From assembly GCF_029919255.1 (NCBI RefSeq), contig NZ_CP123991.1, positions 1,295,110-1,359,109 on the forward strand: a stretch of 64,000 nucleotides of DNA. Direction: 5' to 3'. This stretch comes from a cyanobacterium endosymbiont of Epithemia clementina EcSB (lineage in GTDB: Bacteria > Cyanobacteriota > Cyanobacteriia > Cyanobacteriales > Microcystaceae). Both the position numbers and the translations under genes were made by a program. Shown here piece by piece: positions 12,049 through 49,380 of the stretch; positions within the stretch are counted from its first letter, which is position 1; each line of letters opens with the position of its first letter. Below the pieces are notes generated by a model. The model was not told where the DNA came from. It did no database searches and was given only the letters and a program-made list of their open reading frames with translations.

Positions 12049-12092
12049 ATCAATGGCACATGGCTTTTAATTAAAAGCCATGTGCCATTGAT
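12049..12092. repeat. Perfect 44-bp palindrome between convergent genes
   Basis: ATCAATGGCACATGGCTTTT is mirrored exactly with no loop, centred at 12070/12071. It starts 115 bases after the MMADHC-like gene and touches the hpnJ stop codon, so it could end transcription from both sides. Confidence 0.92.
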
Positions 12093-13531
12093 TAAGAAGC
12101 GTTAACTAAAGTTCGGTTATGACGTTCATTTAAATAAGCCATAAATTCCCGTCCTTCTCGTAAACGACGCACTAACATCTGGGGATCAACTAACATTTCT
12201 TTAACGATAGGAATAATTGCCCCAGGACGGAAATAAAAACGGCGATACATCTGTTCAACTGCATTTTCAATTTCTGCTGCCGATAGATTAGGATATTGCA
12301 AAGTGGACATTTGAATGCCAGAAGTTGCTACTAAATTTCCATTAGTGAACCAACCATTATCTAAAGCTTGTTGATACAATTCTGTCCCGGGATAGGGCGA
12401 AGCAATAGACACTTGAATCGTGTGGGGACTCACCTCACAAGCAAAGCGAATAGTATCTTCAATGGTTTCCTTGCTTTCATTGGGTAAACCGATAATAAAC
12501 GCCCCATGAACCTTGATTCCAAGTTTATTACAGTTAGCCATAAACTTACGGGCGACTTCAAGTTTAATACCTTTTTTCACTCCATCAAGTACTTTTTGAT
12601 TTCCTGATTCAAAACCGACTAAAAGTAATCTTAATCCGTTGTTTCGCAGAATTTTTAAAGTATCGTAATCTAAGTTAGCACGGGCATTACAACTCCAAGT
12701 TAATTTTAGTCTTTTGAGATATTCACTAATAGCAATTACCCGTTTTTTATCAATGGTAAAAGTATCATCATCAAAGAAATATTCCCGAATAGAATTTCCC
12801 CAAAGAGATTTTGCTAACGCCATTTCTTTTCCTACCGCTTCAGGACTTTTGGCGCGATATTGATGTCCTCCGATAGTTTGGGGCCACAGACAAAACGTAC
12901 ATTTTGCAGGACAACCGCGACCTGTGTACAAAGAAATGTAGGGATTAAGTAAATAACCAACAAAATAGTTTCTAATATCAAGATTATCTGCATAGACAGG
13001 GAAAACACTGGGCATTGAATCCCAATCGTGAATTAATTCCCGTTCTTCAGTATGTTTAATATTTCCTTGTTGATCACGGTAACTGAGTCCCTTAATTTGG
13101 TCGTAGGACTTTCCTTCAGCTAATTCTTGACAAGAGTAATCAAATTCATTGCGACAAACAAAATCAAGAATTGGATTTTCTTCGAGAGTTTTAGTCGGTA
13201 AAACCGCCGCATGTGCCCCTAATAAACCAATTTGAGTGTTAGGATTTTGGGCTTTAATAGCCTGAGCGCATTTTACGTCATTAAGAAGAGTGGGGGTACT
13301 GGTATACATAATAACCAGTTCATAGTCTTTAGCAATTTTAAGAACATCCTCCACCGTTTGATAATGAGCAGGAGCATCTACTAGTTTACTCCCAGGAACC
13401 AATGCTGCCGGTTGTGCTAACCAAGTCGGATACCAAAAAGAGGTAATTTCACGTTTCGCTTGATATCTTGCTCCTGCACCTCCATCAAAACCATTAAAGG
13501 AAGGGGGACTCAGAAAGAGCGTCTTTTGCAT
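12092..13531 (-). CDS. hpnJ: Hopanoid biosynthesis radical SAM protein HpnJ
   Basis: 479 residues. The N-terminal B12-binding domain (about 50-150) follows the family's opening SFNGFDGGAGARYQAKRE and WYPTWLAQPAALVPGSKL. The radical SAM motif GRGCPAKCTFCLWPQ supplies the three cluster cysteines at 207, 211 and 214. HpnJ converts ribosyl-hopane-derived side chains to the cyclitol ether head group of bacteriohopanepolyols in the membrane. The start is ATG 13531, with GAGG nine bases upstream. The gene is full length and undisturbed, which stands out among many dead neighbours and suggests that modified hopanoids remain useful. A related B12/radical SAM enzyme of other specificity is possible but less likely. 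Confidence 0.85.
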   Translation of the reverse strand: MQKTLFLSPPSFNGFDGGAGARYQAKREITSFWYPTWLAQPAALVPGSKLVDAPAHYQTVEDVLKIAKDYELVIMYTSTPTLLNDVKCAQAIKAQNPNTQIGLLGAHAAVLPTKTLEENPILDFVCRNEFDYSCQELAEGKSYDQIKGLSYRDQQGNIKHTEERELIHDWDSMPSVFPVYADNLDIRNYFVGYLLNPYISLYTGRGCPAKCTFCLWPQTIGGHQYRAKSPEAVGKEMALAKSLWGNSIREYFFDDDTFTIDKKRVIAISEYLKRLKLTWSCNARANLDYDTLKILRNNGLRLLLVGFESGNQKVLDGVKKGIKLEVARKFMANCNKLGIKVHGAFIIGLPNESKETIEDTIRFACEVSPHTIQVSIASPYPGTELYQQALDNGWFTNGNLVATSGIQMSTLQYPNLSAAEIENAVEQMYRRFYFRPGAIIPIVKEMLVDPQMLVRRLREGREFMAYLNERHNRTLVNAS

Positions 13532-13688
13532 GTTGTTTCCTCACACTACCACTGAATTAATTATCAATACAATCTAATAATTCTAGTCAATATCAACGAT
13601 AAAAGGTTCCTGAAACTGAAGACATATCTCTCTTAATGCACTACAGTCATTGGTTAGACATAAATAAACAGCACTACATTAATGTATG

Positions 13689-13730
13689 TTAAAGCTGTAA
13701 CTTTTAAAGCTTTAAAAGTTACAGCTTTAA
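13689..13730. repeat. Perfect 42-bp palindrome
   Basis: Arms of 21 bases around an AAGCTT centre, no loop: TTAAAGCTGTAACTTTTAAAG and its exact reverse complement. Non-coding; no T tract typical of a terminator follows. Confidence 0.92.
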
Positions 13731-13798
13731 AAGCAACTACCATAAACAGACCCCAAAGTGTGTCTAAAGAATTAGCCATAAGAACTCTGATTAACTAA

Positions 13799-13843
13799 TT
13801 TCATCTTCTCGTTTAAGAGTATTTCTTAAATGAGAAGATGAAA
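13799..13843. repeat. Near-perfect inverted repeat, 20-bp arms
   Basis: TTTCATCTTCTCGTTTAAGA pairs with 13824-13843 with one mismatch (a G-T pair) and a five-base loop. It lies in non-coding DNA 110 bases from the previous palindrome. Confidence 0.88.
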
Positions 13844-14332
13844 AGAACCTTATTCGGGTTAAACAAAGCTCAACAAGTCCCTTAAAAAAGAAAAGATAGA
13901 GCTAGCATCATTAGACTGTTAGCACTGGGGTAGAAGATAGATAAAATCGTTATTTATCTTTAAAATGGGCTTCCTAGACAGTCCGCCTAAAAACTTATCT
14001 GTGGAACAAACAGGGGAGTTGATTAACTAAAAACTAGATATAAAAGTCTGAATCTTATTCAACTAGGTTAAAAATTAGTGTCAGATTTACGCTAATTAAC
14101 GTCTCTATTGCTTTCGAGCTTCAATTTAAGCTTTTTAAGCTAGGTAATTTTCTGAGATTTTCAGTATGATTAGACAGAATAGTCTATAGTGAGCACTCTA
14201 TTTTTAACTGCTTATCCTATTCTAGACTTATTTAAGTTCATTTACTTAGCAACATAAAATGATTTGTTTTTAACGTTTATTTAAAACTGCATTCTTTTTT
14301 AATGGAGAATGGCTAAGTTAGAGTCAATCTTC

Positions 14333-14411
14333 AAAAGTCTTAATTTTCATAAGGTATTATGGATAATAGTCAAGTTAGACTTAACCACCAAGAGTCTTGA
14401 TTTTCATAAGG
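14333..14411 (+). promoter_or_regulatory. Direct repeat upstream of ado
   Basis: AAAAGTCTTAATTTTCATAAGG (14333-14354) recurs as AGAGTCTTGATTTTCATAAGG (14391-14411), 57 bases apart and 55 bases before the ado start. The two copies could be paired regulator sites or a local duplication. No named operator matches. Confidence 0.5.
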
Positions 14412-14465
14412 ACACCACTTTAACCCGTAAACTCAGTTAATAATCCACAGGAGATAAACTATCTT

Positions 14466-15161
14466 ATGCAAGAGCTTGCCACACGCTCAGAGCTTGAGTT
14501 CAACAGCGAAACCTACAAGGACGCCTACAGCCGCATTAATGCCGTCGTTATCAAAGGCGAAGAAGAGGCGCATCAAAATTATATAGATATAGCTCAAATG
14601 CTACCTGATCACAAAGATGAGTTAATCCGTCTTGCTAAGATGGAAAACCGTCACAAGAAAGGTTTTGAGTCCTGTGGGAAGAATTTGAGCGTTACTCCTG
14701 ATATGGAGTATGCTCAAAAATTTTTTGCCCAACTCAATGGGAATTTTCAACAAGCCAAAGCCCAAGGAAAGATTGTTACTTGCTTGTTAATTCAATCTTT
14801 GATCATCGAAGCTTTTGCTATTGCTGCTTATAATATCTACATTCCTGTTGCTGACCCCTTTGCTCGAAAAATTACCGAAAGAGTGGTTAAAGATGAATAT
14901 GCTCATCTAAATTTTGGTGAGGTCTGGCTTCAAAAGAATTTTGAAACATCAAAAGCGGAATTAGAAGAAGCTAACAAAGGCAATTTACCTATCGTTTGGA
15001 CAATGCTTAATCAAGTTAGAGACGATGCAGAAGTTCTAGGAATGGAAAAAGAAGCATTAATTGAAGACTTCATGATTAGTTATGGAGAGGCATTAAGCAA
15101 CATTGGCTTTAGCACTCGTGACATCATGCAAATGTCTTCCTATGGCTTAAAAGCAGCTTAG
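14466..15161 (+). CDS. ado: Aldehyde deformylating oxygenase (alkane synthesis)
   Basis: 231 residues, the standard length. All six di-iron ligands are in place by family numbering: E32, E60, H63, E115, E144 and H147, within [34 protein letters not shown] and [15 protein letters not shown]. The enzyme turns fatty aldehyde into an alkane plus formate, using reduced ferredoxin and oxygen, giving the C15/C17 hydrocarbons of cyanobacterial membranes. Its partner acyl-ACP reductase usually lies directly downstream. Here the next 1.4 kb holds only a dead cpcE, so the reductase must be elsewhere or lost. Codon use is less AT-rich at the 5-prime end than in neighbours, consistent with strong expression. 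Confidence 0.95.
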
Positions 15162-15296
15162 GACACTTTATTACATATCTGCAAAAGATTCCTAACCAAA
15201 TTATTGGGTTTAAATTATCGCCCTTCTAGGGCGAATTTCTTTGAGCATCCTTTTAGTTGTTGATAGTCCTAGGAGTTCTACAAAAGGTTATCAATC
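15162..15296. other. Spacer after ado
   Basis: A small hairpin-like stretch (CGCCCTTCTAGGGCG near 15220) lies about 60 bases after the ado stop and could be its terminator. Nothing else is seen. Confidence 0.45.
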
Positions 15297-15930
15297 TAAC
15301 CCCGTAATTCTAATGCTGTCGGTAGACTAACCTCTCTGAGAGAAGACTGTTTAGACAGATTGTGTTCCACAAATTTCTCAAAAGCAGGTAATTTCAGTCT
15401 ATTTTCTGCTGAACGTATAGGTATCACCTCAGCTTCTTCCACATAACCAATGGTCCTTGAATCGATTATGGCTGAACAACGTTGCTGTTAATCCTTTCCC
15501 TGTCAAAATCCCTACCAATTTCCTGACATAAATTGCTTTTCACTTTTTAAGTCGCTTCTATTGTGCTGTTTAACAACTTAACTTAGAGATCCACGGCTCT
15601 CTTATCCCCCAGCATTTTTAACACCTGGGCGACAGACTCTCTTAAGTATCATAATTTGAACAATCAAGAGCCTTGATTAATAAGATCATGCCTCTGTGAA
15701 CACCCAATTTTTCTAGAGCTATGGTAGTATTGCCTCTTGGCCGGTAATTATAATTTCCCTCAAGAAAGCGGTCAACAAAGCCTTAACAGCCATCGTGTAA
15801 CTAACCCAAAATTGGCCAATAACCAAGTAGTATAGTAAGGCGCACGGGGTTTGGTAGTTTACGATAAATTCTTTAGCGCTTGTTCCAAGGTATGAGCACG
15901 ATTATCTTTATTATCAGAAAATTTTTCTAC
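15297..15930 (-). pseudogene. cpcE: CpcE (phycocyanobilin lyase alpha subunit) relic
   Basis: Minus-strand pieces in different frames match CpcE from N- to C-terminus. NRAHTLEQALKNLS matches the opening LTVEQAIANLQ, and PRAPYYTTWLLANFGLV matches PSLRYYAAWWLGKFRV. ESVAQVLKMLGDKRAVDL matches the HEAT repeat after YYVREAAAQSLxMLGD. The end IGYVEEAEVIPIRSAENRLK with FVEHN matches IGYxxAAEAI...SAENSFK and LLEHQ. Many stops and an internal deletion make it non-functional. CpcE/CpcF attach phycocyanobilin to phycocyanin, so this marks loss of phycobilisome assembly. Assignment rests on remembered family sequence. Confidence 0.8.
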
Positions 15931-45538: not shown

Positions 45539-47635
45539 ATGTTAAAAGTCTTTGTTGATCGAGGTGGAACTTTTACCGATGTAGTTGTGGTAACTGACAA
45601 TCAAAAAATTATAGATAATATTTCAACACAAGACAAACGGTTTTGTTTCTTTAAAATTTCTAGTACAAAGTGAATTATTTTATATAAAATTCTATCAGAA
45701 AATCCGAGTAAATATCAAAATGCTGTTATTCAAGGTATCCGAGATATTATGGGAGTTAATACTTATGAATTGTTAGATACCAAACAACTAGAAGTAATCA
45801 AGATGGGTGCCACTGTGGCAACCAATGCTTTACTCGAAAGAAAAGGTACTCACACAGTTTTACTAATTACCAAAGGGTTTAAAGATGCTCTAAGAATTGG
45901 CTACCAAAATCGCCCGAATCTTTTTGCACTTAATATAATTTTACCTTCAATGTTATATAAAGATGTTATTGAGGTTGACGAAAGATATGATGTTCAGGGT
46001 CATGAATTAAAAGCAATTAGCCATAAAGAAGTATATCAAGATTTAAAACAAGTTTACGACCAAGGAATTAGAAGCTGTGCCATTGTTTTTATGCACAGTT
46101 TTCGTTTTCCTTACCATGAAAATCAAGTTAGTCAAATCGCTAAAGAAATTGGCTTTACTCAAGTTTCAGTTTCCCATCAAGTTAGTCCTCTAATGAAACT
46201 GGTAGCGAGAGGAGACACTACGGTTGTTGATGCTTATTTATCACCTATTTTACGTCGATATATAGACCGAGTTTTAAGTCAGTTACCTGATGTCAGATTG
46301 ATGTTTATGAAATCAGATGGAGGATTGGTTGATGCTAATCAATTTCATGGAAAAGACAGTATTCTATCAGGTCCTGCAGGAGGAATTGTTGGGGCAGTTA
46401 AAACTAGCTTAAGGGCAGGCTTTAAAAAGATAATTACTTTCGATATGGGGGGAACTTCTACTGATGTTGCTCACTTCAATGGAGAATATGAAAGACAGAT
46501 TGATAATAAAATTGCGGGGATCAGAATTCGAGTTCCTATGTTAAGTATTCACACGGTGGCTGCTGGTGGTAGTTCTATACTATTTTTTGATGGGTTTAGC
46601 TTTCGTGTGGGTCCAGAGTCTGCTGGGGCAAATCCTGGACCTGCTTGTTATCGTCGCGGTGGACCATTAACAGTAACGGATGCTAATGTTATGGTAGGGA
46701 AAATTAGTCCTAGTTATTTTCCCGCTATCTTTGGAACTCAAGAAAATTTGCCTTTAGACAGAGAAATTGTTAATCAAAAGTTTACTCAACTGACACAAAA
46801 ATTTTGTTGTGCTACAGGTAATTTAACTAACCCAGAGAAAGTCGCCGATGGCTTTATTTTAATTGCAGTTCAAAATATGGCCAATGCAATTAAACAAGTA
46901 TCTCTACAAAAAGGCTTTGATGTTACAAAATACACTCTGACTAGTTTTGGCGGTGCAGGAGGACAAGTTTGCTGTTTAATTGCCGATACTTTAGGTATCA
47001 CAACAATTTTCCTTCATCCTTATGCAGGAGTTTTAAGTGCTTATGGAATGGGTTTAGCAGATCTTTGTGTGATTCAAGAAAAATCTGTTGAAGAGTTGTT
47101 AACTCAAGAATTAGTTTCTCAATTAAATACATTGGGTAATGAGTTAGAAATCGAAGGTAATAATAAACTTAATTCTCAGACTTTAGAAGTAAAAAATAAA
47201 GTAAAGAAAAAAGTTAACTTAAAATATCAAGGTACAGACTCAACCTTATTAATTAATCTTTTAGATACGTCAGAAACGATGGTTAAATTATTTGAGGAGG
47301 AGCATCAATCGCGCTACGGTTTTATTCAATCAAACAAACCTTTAATTGTAGAATCAATTTCTATCGAAGTAATTCAACAAATGGAAACTCCAGAAGAGCC
47401 TTTTATTGATCGTATTCGCCCCCTTAATGAGTCTCCTAAATACTTAGAAATTGTTCAAATATTTACCCATGACAGTTGGCACGATACTCCTATTTATCGA
47501 CGAGAAGACTTACAACCTCAAGATAATATTAAAGGACCTGCAATTATCGTTGAAAAAATCAGTACCATTATTGTTGAACCTAACTGGAAAGCGATATTAA
47601 CTGAGTATAATCATCTTATTCTGCAACGATATTAA
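45539..47635 (+). pseudogene. 5-oxoprolinase/hydantoinase A half, disrupted near the N-terminus
   Basis: ATG 45539 opens KVFVDRGGTFTDVVVVTDN, the normal start of the HyuA/5-oxoprolinase ATPase domain. It is interrupted by non-family residues and a TGA at 45671-45673. The frame then continues unbroken from LSENPSKYQ through VIKMGATVATNALLERKGTH, AGGIVGAVKT, ITFDMGGTSTDVAH, FRVGPESAGANPGPACYRRG and LTSFGGAGGQVCCLIADTLG. So 628 codons (45749-47635) remain open downstream of the stop. The family hydrolyses 5-oxoproline to glutamate with ATP. Without the first 70 residues the actin-like nucleotide site is incomplete, so the protein is probably inactive. Confidence 0.85.
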
Positions 47636-47833: not shown

Positions 47834-49380
47834 ATGTGTCATAAATCTCAACCCAATCCTATTTATCTCGAAATTTTTAACAATCTCTATCAGTTCATTG
47901 CTGAACAGATGGGAATCACCCTACGAAATACAGCATCTTCAGTAAATATCAAAGAACGTCTTGATTTTTCTTGTGCAATCTTTAATAAACAAGGGTTATT
48001 GGTAGCTCATGCGCCCCATATTCCCGTGCATTTAGGAAGTATGAGTGAAAGTGTCAAAAGCTTAATTAAAGACAAAGAAAATTACTTTAAATTTGGCGAT
48101 GTTTATATTTCTAATAACCCCTATAATGGAGGAACTCATTAACCTGATGTAACCGTTATAACACCTGTCTTTGCAAATTCTAATACTCCTAAACTTATCT
48201 TTTATGTAGCGTCCCGTGGTCATCAAGCGGATATTGGGGGAATTACTCCAGGATCAATGCCTCCTCATTCTAAATCCATCTTAGAAGAAGGGATTTTATT
48301 TGATAATTGTCTTTTAGTGGAATCAGGAATTTTTAAAGAAGAAGATATTAGAAATATTTTACGGAATAATCCCTATCCTGCGCGCAATCCGGAACAAAAT
48401 ATTATGGACTTTAAGTCCCAAATTGCAGCTAATAAAACAGGGGTAAAAGAATTACATCACATGATTGAACAATATGGACTCGATACCGTCCATAATTATA
48501 TGGAGTTTGTTCAAGATAATGCCGAAGAATGTGTTAGGAAAGCAATTGTAATTTTGAAAGATGGAGATTTTACCTATACCTTGGATCAAGGGTCAAAAAT
48601 TAAAGTAAAAGTCAAAATAGACCAAGAAAGTCGTTGTGCAACTATTGATTTTACTGGAACTTCTATCCAAAAAAATGATAATTTTAATGCCCCAAAATCA
48701 GTTACTCAGGCAGCTATTCTATATGTTTTTAGAACTTTAGTAAAAGATAATATTCCGCTCAATAATGGATGCCTAAAACCACTTAATTTAATCATTCCTG
48801 AAGGTTGTCTATTAAACCCAAATTATCCAGCTGGAGTTGTTGCTGGAAATGTGGAGACTTCTCAATCAATTGTTGATGCTTTATATGGTGCATTGAAAGT
48901 CCTAGCAGCTTCCCAAGGAACGATGAACAACTTCACCTTTGGTAACGAGAAATATCAGTATTATGAAACAATCTGTGGAGGATCTGGAGCGGGTTATAAT
49001 TTTGATGGAACCGATGCTGTTCATACCCATATGACTAACTCTTGTTTAACTGATCCAGAAGTTTTAGAATGGCGATTTCCTGTCATATTAGAAGATTTTA
49101 GGATTTGCCCTAATAGTGGTGGTCAAGGATTATATAAAGGGGTAATGGGGTAATTCGTCGTCTAAAATTTTTAGAATCAATGACAGCCACTATTCTATCG
49201 AGTCATCGTATTATTCCTCCCTTTGGTTTACTAGGAGGAAAACCAGGAATAGTGGGTAAAAACTATGTAATTAGAAAAAATGGAATACTTGAAGAATTAG
49301 CTGGTACAGCCATGACTGAAATGAACCCAGAAGAAATTTTTGTTATTGAAACCCCTGGAGGAGGTGGATATGGAAATTAA
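47834..49380 (+). pseudogene. 5-oxoprolinase/hydantoinase B half with stop and frameshift
   Basis: Three open pieces make up the HyuB half. 47834-48142 (IAEQMGITLRNTASSVNIKE, ISNNPYNGGTH) ends at a TAA where the family has leucine in GGTHLPD. 48257-49153 (SRGHQADIGGITPGSMPPHS lies just before and across its start) ends with NSGGQGLYKGVMG after loss of one G in the run at 49140-49144. 49180-49380 (LESMTATILSSHRIIPPFG, ending ETPGGGGYGN) restores the proper frame. The remaining sequence is very well conserved, so the damage is recent. With the broken A half, 5-oxoproline recycling is lost unless another copy exists. Confidence 0.88.

What the first reader, a model, noticed from the sequence alone, without database searches (positions are those of the whole stretch)
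14466..15161. Aldehyde deformylating oxygenase kept intact without its partner nearby
All di-iron ligands are conserved, so the enzyme is under selection. No acyl-ACP reductase follows. Either the partner moved, or the enzyme uses aldehydes from another source. Membrane alkanes may matter for thick internal membranes or for limiting oxygen.
Basis: partly seen in the sequence, partly recalled or inferred. Interest (0 to 1): 0.5.

Follow-up and report, generated by a model that had tools for sequence, protein, structure and literature searches.

The report
Complete alkane pathway in non-photosynthetic endosymbiont
The oxygenase is real and intact, but its partner enzyme is also intact about a million bases away; what is notable is that this cyanobacterium, of a kind that lives inside diatoms, has lost its photosystem genes yet still keeps the whole two-enzyme route to membrane alkanes.

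Summary
The gene at 14466-15161 is a true aldehyde deformylating oxygenase (ADO): 231 aa, TIGR04059 405.7 bits against a cut-off of 222.65, all six iron ligands present. It is not an orphan: the same one-contig genome holds an intact acyl-ACP reductase (AAR) 1.08 Mb away (648.2 bits, cut-off 449.7), with active Cys294. In a phylum sample 133 of 291 genomes have ADO, and the same 133 have AAR. The genes are apart in 13 of those 133, and the split predates the symbiosis: free-living congeners G001 and G006 share it.

What stands out is the genome. It is of the diatom spheroid-body (diazoplast) kind: its PSI and PSII core genes are stop-ridden fragments, yet ado and aar are intact and under purifying selection in 4 of 4 diazoplasts. 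In the phylum sample the only 3 pathway genomes with no PSI match or a broken one are diazoplasts. The ado leader is conserved and carries a 57-bp tandem duplication seen only in diazoplasts. The pathway therefore seems to have a role that does not need photosynthesis, perhaps in respiratory membranes; that role is inferred.

The parts
14466..15161 (+). ado, aldehyde deformylating oxygenase, 231 aa
14296..14465 (+). conserved ado promoter/leader region (170 bp): 90-93% identical between this genome and each of three other diazoplasts (G003 against G002 and G005: 87-88%); its last 110 bp 84% in G001, 73% in G004 and 72% in G006
14302..14354 (+). copy 1 of a 57-bp tandem duplication within the leader (53-bp core), found in 4 of 4 diazoplasts
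14359..14411 (+). copy 2 of the duplication; this copy is the one present singly in congeners G001, G004 and G006; a TATTAT box just before it (TATAAT in G004 and G006) is a candidate -10 element, read by eye and not reported by the scan
15218..15234 (+). possible intrinsic terminator of ado (7-bp stem, 5 G-C pairs); one such site is about what shuffled sequence gives (mean 0.9)
12092..13531 (-). divergent upstream neighbour: HpnJ-family radical SAM protein (hopanoid-associated); same arrangement in G001 and 4 of 4 diazoplasts; context only

Best explanation
This is the second half of an ordinary, complete cyanobacterial alkane pathway whose two genes sit at separate loci, in the reduced genome of a diatom endosymbiont (spheroid body or diazoplast) that has lost its photosystem genes. 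AAR (elsewhere on the chromosome) reduces fatty acyl-ACP with NADPH to a fatty aldehyde. ADO, using O2 and electrons from NADPH via PetH and ferredoxin, cuts it to a C(n-1) alkane plus formate. The alkane goes into the retained internal (respiratory) membranes. SHOWN here: both genes intact, catalytic residues present, purifying selection on both, conserved ado leader, intact PetH reductase domain, broken photosystem core genes. INFERRED: that both enzymes are made and active, that the products are C15/C17 alkanes, and that the selected role is a membrane-physical or growth role that does not need photosynthesis.
For: AAR intact in the same genome; Cys294 and all three glycines of GXXGXXG at 162, 165 and 168 present. 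ADO and AAR genome sets identical, 133 and 133 of 291. Observed amino-acid changes below all 500 neutral replicates in 24 of 24 comparisons (6 diazoplast pairs x 2 genes x 2 kappa values, not independent). NG86 dN/dS among diazoplasts 0.105-0.327 for ado and 0.059-0.100 for aar. Each diazoplast breaks 1-2 family-invariant ADO sites and 1-2 AAR sites, inside the leave-one-out range of the other relatives (0-2 and 0-3). The longest PsaA/B stretch in G000 carries 19 stops, while ado and aar carry none. PetH is 297 aa, 601.5 bits against a cut-off of 600, although its N-terminal part is gone. Published: diazoplast genomes imply complete fatty-acid and phospholipid synthesis (passage of PMC12903740), and thylakoids are seen in E. 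clementina diazoplasts despite loss of photosystems (passages of PMC11070190). PspA/IM30-family proteins are kept in 7 of 7 genus members, but that family also matched 9 of 14 control genomes, most of them not cyanobacteria, so this is weak.
Against: No transcript, protein or hydrocarbon data were seen. ado is less tightly constrained in diazoplasts than in free-living congeners (NG86 0.105-0.327 against 0.043-0.072). YN00 gives higher values for near ado pairs (up to 0.667 for G005-G002, where dS is only 0.079; one ado pair failed). Diazoplast tips are longer (ADO root-to-tip 0.183-0.239 against 0.065-0.130; AAR 0.113-0.163 against 0.033-0.075). ADO position 30, Glu in 41 of 41 other relatives and two residues from ligand E32, is Lys in 3 of 4 diazoplasts. 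PMC8661006 notes that hydrocarbons are not essential in any tested laboratory condition (passage). The membrane role is not tested here.
Confidence: 0.8

Rival explanations
1. Orphan ADO: the reductase is lost and ADO takes aldehydes from another source, such as the host, lipid peroxidation or apocarotenals.
For: No AAR beside ado.
Against: Intact AAR in the same genome, and AAR in 6 of 6 congeners searched (in G004 it is in two pieces around an N stretch). No genome of the 133 has one without the other (one AAR, G080, is partial and one, G231, has a stop inside). A survey of 181 genomes also found none (section 11 of PMC4094844).
Confidence: 0.02
2. Neutral relic: both genes are merely not yet lost after a recent loss of photosynthesis.
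For: ado dN/dS is raised relative to free-living congeners, and the trees show longer diazoplast branches.
Against: Amino-acid changes are below all 500 neutral replicates in 24 of 24 comparisons. Zero stop codons occurred in only 1-21 of 500 replicates for aar and 4-13 of 500 for the ado pairs that include G003; closer ado pairs are less telling (37-93 of 500). Photosystem core genes in the same genomes are already broken or not found. The ado leader is 90-93% identical between G000 and the other three, while most of the rest of the spacer does not align with G003.
Confidence: 0.05
3. The pathway is kept for its reaction rather than its alkane: O2 consumption near nitrogenase, formate supply, or use of the AAR aldehyde in another branch such as oxidation to a fatty acid.
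For: ADO uses O2 and makes formate (established chemistry; passages of PMC5356278, and PMC4094844). Klahn et al. speculate on other aldehyde branches (passage). Diazoplasts must protect nitrogenase from oxygen (passages of PMC11070190).
Against: ADO is a very slow enzyme (kcat below 1 per minute, start of abstract of PMC5356278 in the listing), so its O2 removal should be small beside respiration; ADO itself is conserved, which an aldehyde-only role would not need.
Confidence: 0.12
4. Diazoplast ADO has a shifted activity or specificity, signalled by Lys30 beside the iron ligand and by AAR Lys/Arg52.
For: ADO K30 in 3 of 4 and AAR K/R52 in 4 of 4 diazoplasts, against E in 41 of 41 and G in 40 of 40 other relatives.
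Against: One diazoplast (G005) keeps E30; all ligands are intact; the number of odd sites is within the range of the other relatives.
Confidence: 0.1

Closest known systems
Cyanobacterial AAR/ADO alkane pathway (sll0209/sll0208 of Synechocystis 6803; Schirmer et al. 2010, known here through PMC4094844)
   Same: Both enzymes, full length, catalytic residues, one copy each, PetH electron donor
   Different: Genes at separate loci (as in a minority of strains); genome without intact photosystem core genes; duplicated leader block
   Same: Same split ado and aar, same rSAM neighbour, same duplication, PSI and PSII core genes broken or not found
   Different: ado position 30 is Glu in G005; spacer lengths differ
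UCYN-A-sized genomes G013 and G021 (contigs of 1,443,806 and 1,491,611 bp; the name is recalled from size)
   Same: Reduced relatives, no PSII reaction-centre match (0 of 2; G014 and G018 matched in the same), both pathway genes kept
   Different: ado and aar are adjacent. PSI retention is recalled from the literature and was not tested for these two

Membership tests
Aldehyde deformylating oxygenase (TIGR04059 / PF11266) | Score over the curated cut-off across the whole profile | tested here: met
   405.7 bits against 222.65, profile 1-219 of 220
Aldehyde deformylating oxygenase (TIGR04059 / PF11266) | Six di-iron ligands (E32, E60, H63, E115, E144, H147) | tested here: met
   Five of the six are named as ligands in passages of PMC5356278; H63 is recalled, and is His in 41 of 41 relatives. 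That passage also lists Glu44 as coordinating; position 44 is Gln here and variable in relatives (E in 18 of 41), so I do not count it as a ligand
Aldehyde deformylating oxygenase (TIGR04059 / PF11266) | Makes alkane plus formate from fatty aldehyde | not testable with these tools
   needs enzyme assay or GC-MS
AAR/ADO alkane pathway | Acyl-ACP reductase in the same genome | tested here: met
   G000:C1:225987-227000, 648.2 bits against cut-off 449.7, no stops; C294, G162, G165 and G168 present
AAR/ADO alkane pathway | Reducing system: ferredoxin-NADP reductase | tested here: met
   PetH 297 aa, 601.5 bits against 600, profile 113-411 of 411; ferredoxin itself not searched
AAR/ADO alkane pathway | ado and aar adjacent | tested here: not met
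   1,083,615 bp apart; not a defining feature, since 13 of 133 pathway genomes lack it (one of the 13, G171, looks like an assembly break)
Photosynthesis-less spheroid body (diazoplast) | Broken or missing PSI and PSII core genes | tested here: met
   PsaA/B fragments with 19 stops in the longest, Photo_RC fragments with 2-5 stops each
Photosynthesis-less spheroid body (diazoplast) | Groups with named spheroid bodies | tested here: met
Photosynthesis-less spheroid body (diazoplast) | Lives inside a diatom and fixes nitrogen | not tested

The most novel reading that the evidence does not exclude
Alkane synthesis is near-universal in photosynthetic cyanobacteria and its purpose is unresolved. 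Diazoplasts are a natural knockout of photosynthesis in which the pathway survived under selection, with its ado leader conserved and tandemly duplicated. If so, the core role of cyanobacterial alkanes is not PSI cyclic electron flow or phycobilisome handling. It would lie in the mechanics of internal (respiratory) membranes or cell division, and diazoplasts make that testable.
Probability: 0.5. Interest if true: 0.6.

Novelty: new member of a known kind. Interest (0 to 1): 0.38.

Why it matters
Why cyanobacteria make alkanes is an open question: proposals include PSI cyclic electron flow (PMC4602277, passages) and thylakoid curvature and cell division (Lea-Smith et al. 2016, seen only as cited in passages of PMC8661006 and PMC9118987). 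The literature ties the pathway to photosynthetic cyanobacteria (abstract of PMC8661006; passages of PMC4094844). Four genomes without intact photosystem core genes that keep both enzymes under selection separate the pathway from photosynthesis and favour a membrane or division role. As a bare "orphan ADO" the finding is ordinary.

Tried and rejected
Orphan ADO: rejected by the genome search. Loss of adjacency as a symbiosis event: rejected, because free-living G001 and G006 also have the genes apart. Horizontal replacement: not supported; ADO and AAR trees both group the four diazoplasts, with G001 as sister (support of the wider clade 0.842 and 0.938). Neutral relic: opposed. A sigma-70 scan of 13532-15500 found no site at the leader and fewer sites than shuffles (3 against a mean of 6.5), so the -10 box is only read by eye from the alignment. 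I left G004's AAR out of dN/dS and of the AAR site test, because its contig has an N stretch and the match is in two pieces; hence n = 40 for AAR and 41 for ADO. The site test used 40 fetched genomes chosen by me with ado and aar adjacent, plus the genus, not all 133; calling them free-living in the script was a working label, as most are unnamed. In the phylum sample 158 genomes lack ADO, of which 138 are unlisted rows, so I rely on the tool's tally. The PSI match list was truncated, so I did not check every PSI-bearing genome for stops; G274 showed a weaker best match (4.1e-133) than the rest. Olefin synthase, the alternative pathway, was not searched in the 8 PSI-bearing genomes without ado. 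PetH, ferredoxin and nif genes were not searched in the other diazoplasts. Structure prediction was not run, so the place of residue 30 in the fold was not read.

Print searches for the pathway in photosynthesis-less or diatom-endosymbiont cyanobacteria: searches (18 of 18 papers listed; 15 of 1,084 listed; 15 of 142 listed; 15 of 18 listed), plus term look-ups in PMC11070190, PMC12903740, PMC11131595, PMC5638926 and PMC11221429. None of those five texts held "hydrocarbon" in the look-ups, and one search counted no "alkane" in them; PMC12903740 does cite aldehyde dehydrogenase work. Main texts only; supplements were not open to me, and the EtSB genome paper (PNAS 2014) is not held, so a mention in a gene table may exist.

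Full report
WHAT IS THERE. The frame at 14466-15161 (+) encodes 231 aa, is ADO by the curated NCBIfam model (405.7 bits, cut-off 222.65) and by Pfam PF11266, and aligns over residues 1-229 with a solved ADO (4z5s). All six di-iron ligands are present.

THE PARTNER. The window lies at C1:1295110-1359109 of a one-contig genome, G000, of 3,072,807 bp, 99.78% complete. That genome also holds one intact AAR, C1:225987-227000 minus strand, 648.2 bits against a cut-off of 449.7 and no internal stop, 1,083,615 bp from ado. It has Cys294, the residue that carries the acyl group in the S. elongatus enzyme (passages of PMC9743570), and the three glycines of the NADPH motif, and matches solved AAR 6jzu at E 1.5e-155. 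The orphan reading is therefore wrong for the genome, though right for the window.

HOW UNUSUAL IS THE SPLIT. In a phylum sample of 291 genomes (at least 90% completeness asked for), 133 have ADO and exactly the same 133 have AAR. One of these AARs (G080) is partial and below the cut-off, and one (G231) has a stop inside the matched stretch. In 13 of 133 the two genes lie more than 5 kb apart or on different contigs; one of those, G171, has both genes near contig ends and is probably an assembly break, and two more (G143, G213) are 2.1-2.3 kb apart start to start. A survey of 181 genomes reports both genes in 163, adjacency in 138, none with only one, and separate loci in a few strains (section 11 of PMC4094844, read). 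In this genus the split is shared by the free-living members G001 and G006, so it predates the symbiosis. In G004 the genes are on different, short contigs, so its state is open.

WHAT THE ORGANISM IS. PSI core genes in G000 survive only as fragments, the longest with 19 stop codons, and PSII reaction-centre genes as three short fragments with 2 to 5 stops each. G002 and G003 have no PSI match and G005 has broken ones; G003 and G005 have no PSII match and G002 has short fragments. G001, G004 and G006 have intact copies (in G004 some are split over contigs). Contig lengths and record titles identify G002 as EtSB (2,794,318 bp), G003 as uoEpiScrs1 (2,483,960 bp), G001 as strain SU2 and G004 as the metagenome assembly UBA12306. 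G005 (3,020,309 bp) and the main contig of G006 (4,679,413 bp) match RgSB and Rippkaea orientalis PCC 8801 in Table 1 of PMC11131595 (section read). G000 matches no size in that table; its place among the other three makes it, by inference, a spheroid body (diazoplast) of a rhopalodiacean diatom. E. clementina diazoplasts keep thylakoid membranes, interpreted as respiratory (passages of PMC11070190).

THE REAL POINT. In the same 291 genomes, 140 have a PSI core match. Two of these are the broken ones of G000 and G005, leaving 138, of which 130 have ado and aar and 8 do not. Of the 153 others, 3 have ado and aar: G000, G002 and G005, all diazoplasts (the match list was truncated, so stops were not checked in every one of the 138). 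With G003, which was not in that sample, 4 of 4 diazoplasts examined keep both genes. Two UCYN-A-sized genomes with no PSII reaction-centre match also keep both, adjacent.

SELECTION. NG86 dN/dS over six diazoplast pairs is 0.105-0.327 for ado and 0.059-0.100 for aar. For comparison: uvrA 0.108-0.203, glgC 0.051-0.099, the neighbouring radical SAM gene 0.052-0.107. Among the congeners G001, G004 and G006, ado is 0.043-0.072 (3 pairs) and aar 0.051 (1 pair, G004 left out). YN00 gives higher figures for near ado pairs (0.477 for G000-G002, 0.667 for G005-G002) with very low dS, and failed for one ado pair. In simple neutral simulations the observed amino-acid changes were below all 500 replicates in 24 of 24 comparisons, that is 6 non-independent pairs, 2 genes, 2 kappa values. 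At family-invariant sites each diazoplast departs at 1-2 ADO columns and 1-2 AAR columns, within the leave-one-out range of the other relatives (0-2 and 0-3). Branches to diazoplasts are longer than to the other congeners. The reading is purifying selection, relaxed in ado relative to free-living congeners.

DEPARTURES. ADO residue 30 is Lys in G000, G002 and G003 and Glu in G005, in 2 of 2 UCYN-A-sized genomes and in 41 of 41 other relatives. AAR residue 52 is Lys or Arg in 4 of 4 diazoplasts and Gly in 40 of 40. G005 also has N79 and S149 in ADO, and G002 has A3 in AAR. None is a ligand. Whether they change activity is unknown.

LEADER. The 170 bp before ado are 90-93% identical between G000 and the other three diazoplasts, 87-88% between G003 and G002 or G005. 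The last 110 bp reach 84% in G001, 73% in G004 and 72% in G006 (the genome-wide search listed no match in G004). Most of the remaining spacer does not align with G003, apart from some 230-360 bp at the radical SAM end, 70-71% alike, in G002 and G005. Inside the leader lies a 57-bp tandem duplication: two copies in 4 of 4 diazoplasts, one in G001, G004 and G006. Of 13 named relatives tested, the two diazoplasts have two copies, SU2 and UBA12306 one, and 9 gave no match at E 0.05. A TATTAT box precedes copy 2, where G004 and G006 have TATAAT (sequences), so the duplication may carry a second promoter. This is by eye; the consensus scan found no promoter there.

ELECTRON SUPPLY. PetH is present, 297 aa, just over its family cut-off (601.5 against 600 bits), matching profile positions 113-411 of 411. 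The missing N-terminal part corresponds to the CpcD-like linker domain (the domain is in the NF058510 model title; its phycobilisome role is recalled). It looks as if the light-harvesting part went while the reductase that feeds ADO stayed. Two PetH isoforms from two transcript starts are reported in Synechocystis (passage of PMC4094844), so this may be loss of the longer form only.

MECHANISM AND CONFIDENCE. Acyl-ACP to aldehyde to alkane plus formate follows from the established chemistry of the two families (passages of PMC9743570, and PMC5356278). Activity in this organism, product lengths and membrane role are inference. That alkanes enhance thylakoid curvature and that their loss gives division and growth defects is reported by Lea-Smith et al. 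2016 as cited in PMC8661006 and PMC9118987 (passages). The PSI cyclic-flow proposal (PMC4602277, passages) cannot be the reason for retention in genomes without intact PSI genes. PMC8661006 also notes that hydrocarbons are not essential in any tested laboratory condition, which cuts against a simple essential role.

NOVELTY. Enzymes, pathway and split arrangement are known. I found no mention of the pathway in diazoplasts in the searches and papers listed under Tried and rejected, with the limits stated there.

Noticed in passing
14302-14411: 57-bp tandem duplication in the ado leader, in 4 of 4 diazoplasts and single in three congeners; the two copies are 94% alike in G002 but 79% in G000 and 78% in G003, which suggests later homogenisation in G002.
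   Followed up: partly
12092-13531: HpnJ-family radical SAM gene (789.6 bits, cut-off 577.6) divergent from ado in G001 and all four diazoplasts; a second membrane-lipid-associated gene kept beside ado.
   Followed up: partly
13532-14465: The rSAM-ado spacer is 411 bp in SU2 but 934-1918 bp in diazoplasts, although their genomes are smaller; origin of the added DNA not determined. It includes a perfect 42-bp palindrome at 13689-13730.
   Followed up: no
L162:1399-2292: PetH in G000 is 297 aa and lacks the first 112 profile positions (linker domain); not checked in the other diazoplasts.
   Followed up: partly
L028:2764-3645: The gene just downstream of aar is a PF02113 D-Ala-D-Ala carboxypeptidase-family protein (tested in G000 only); a similar-looking frame lies next to aar in the six congeners (by eye).
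   Followed up: no
45749-47635 and 48257-49153: Two long frames that look like hydantoinase/oxoprolinase subunits (by eye, no search run), the second apparently truncated; possible decaying gene.
   Followed up: no
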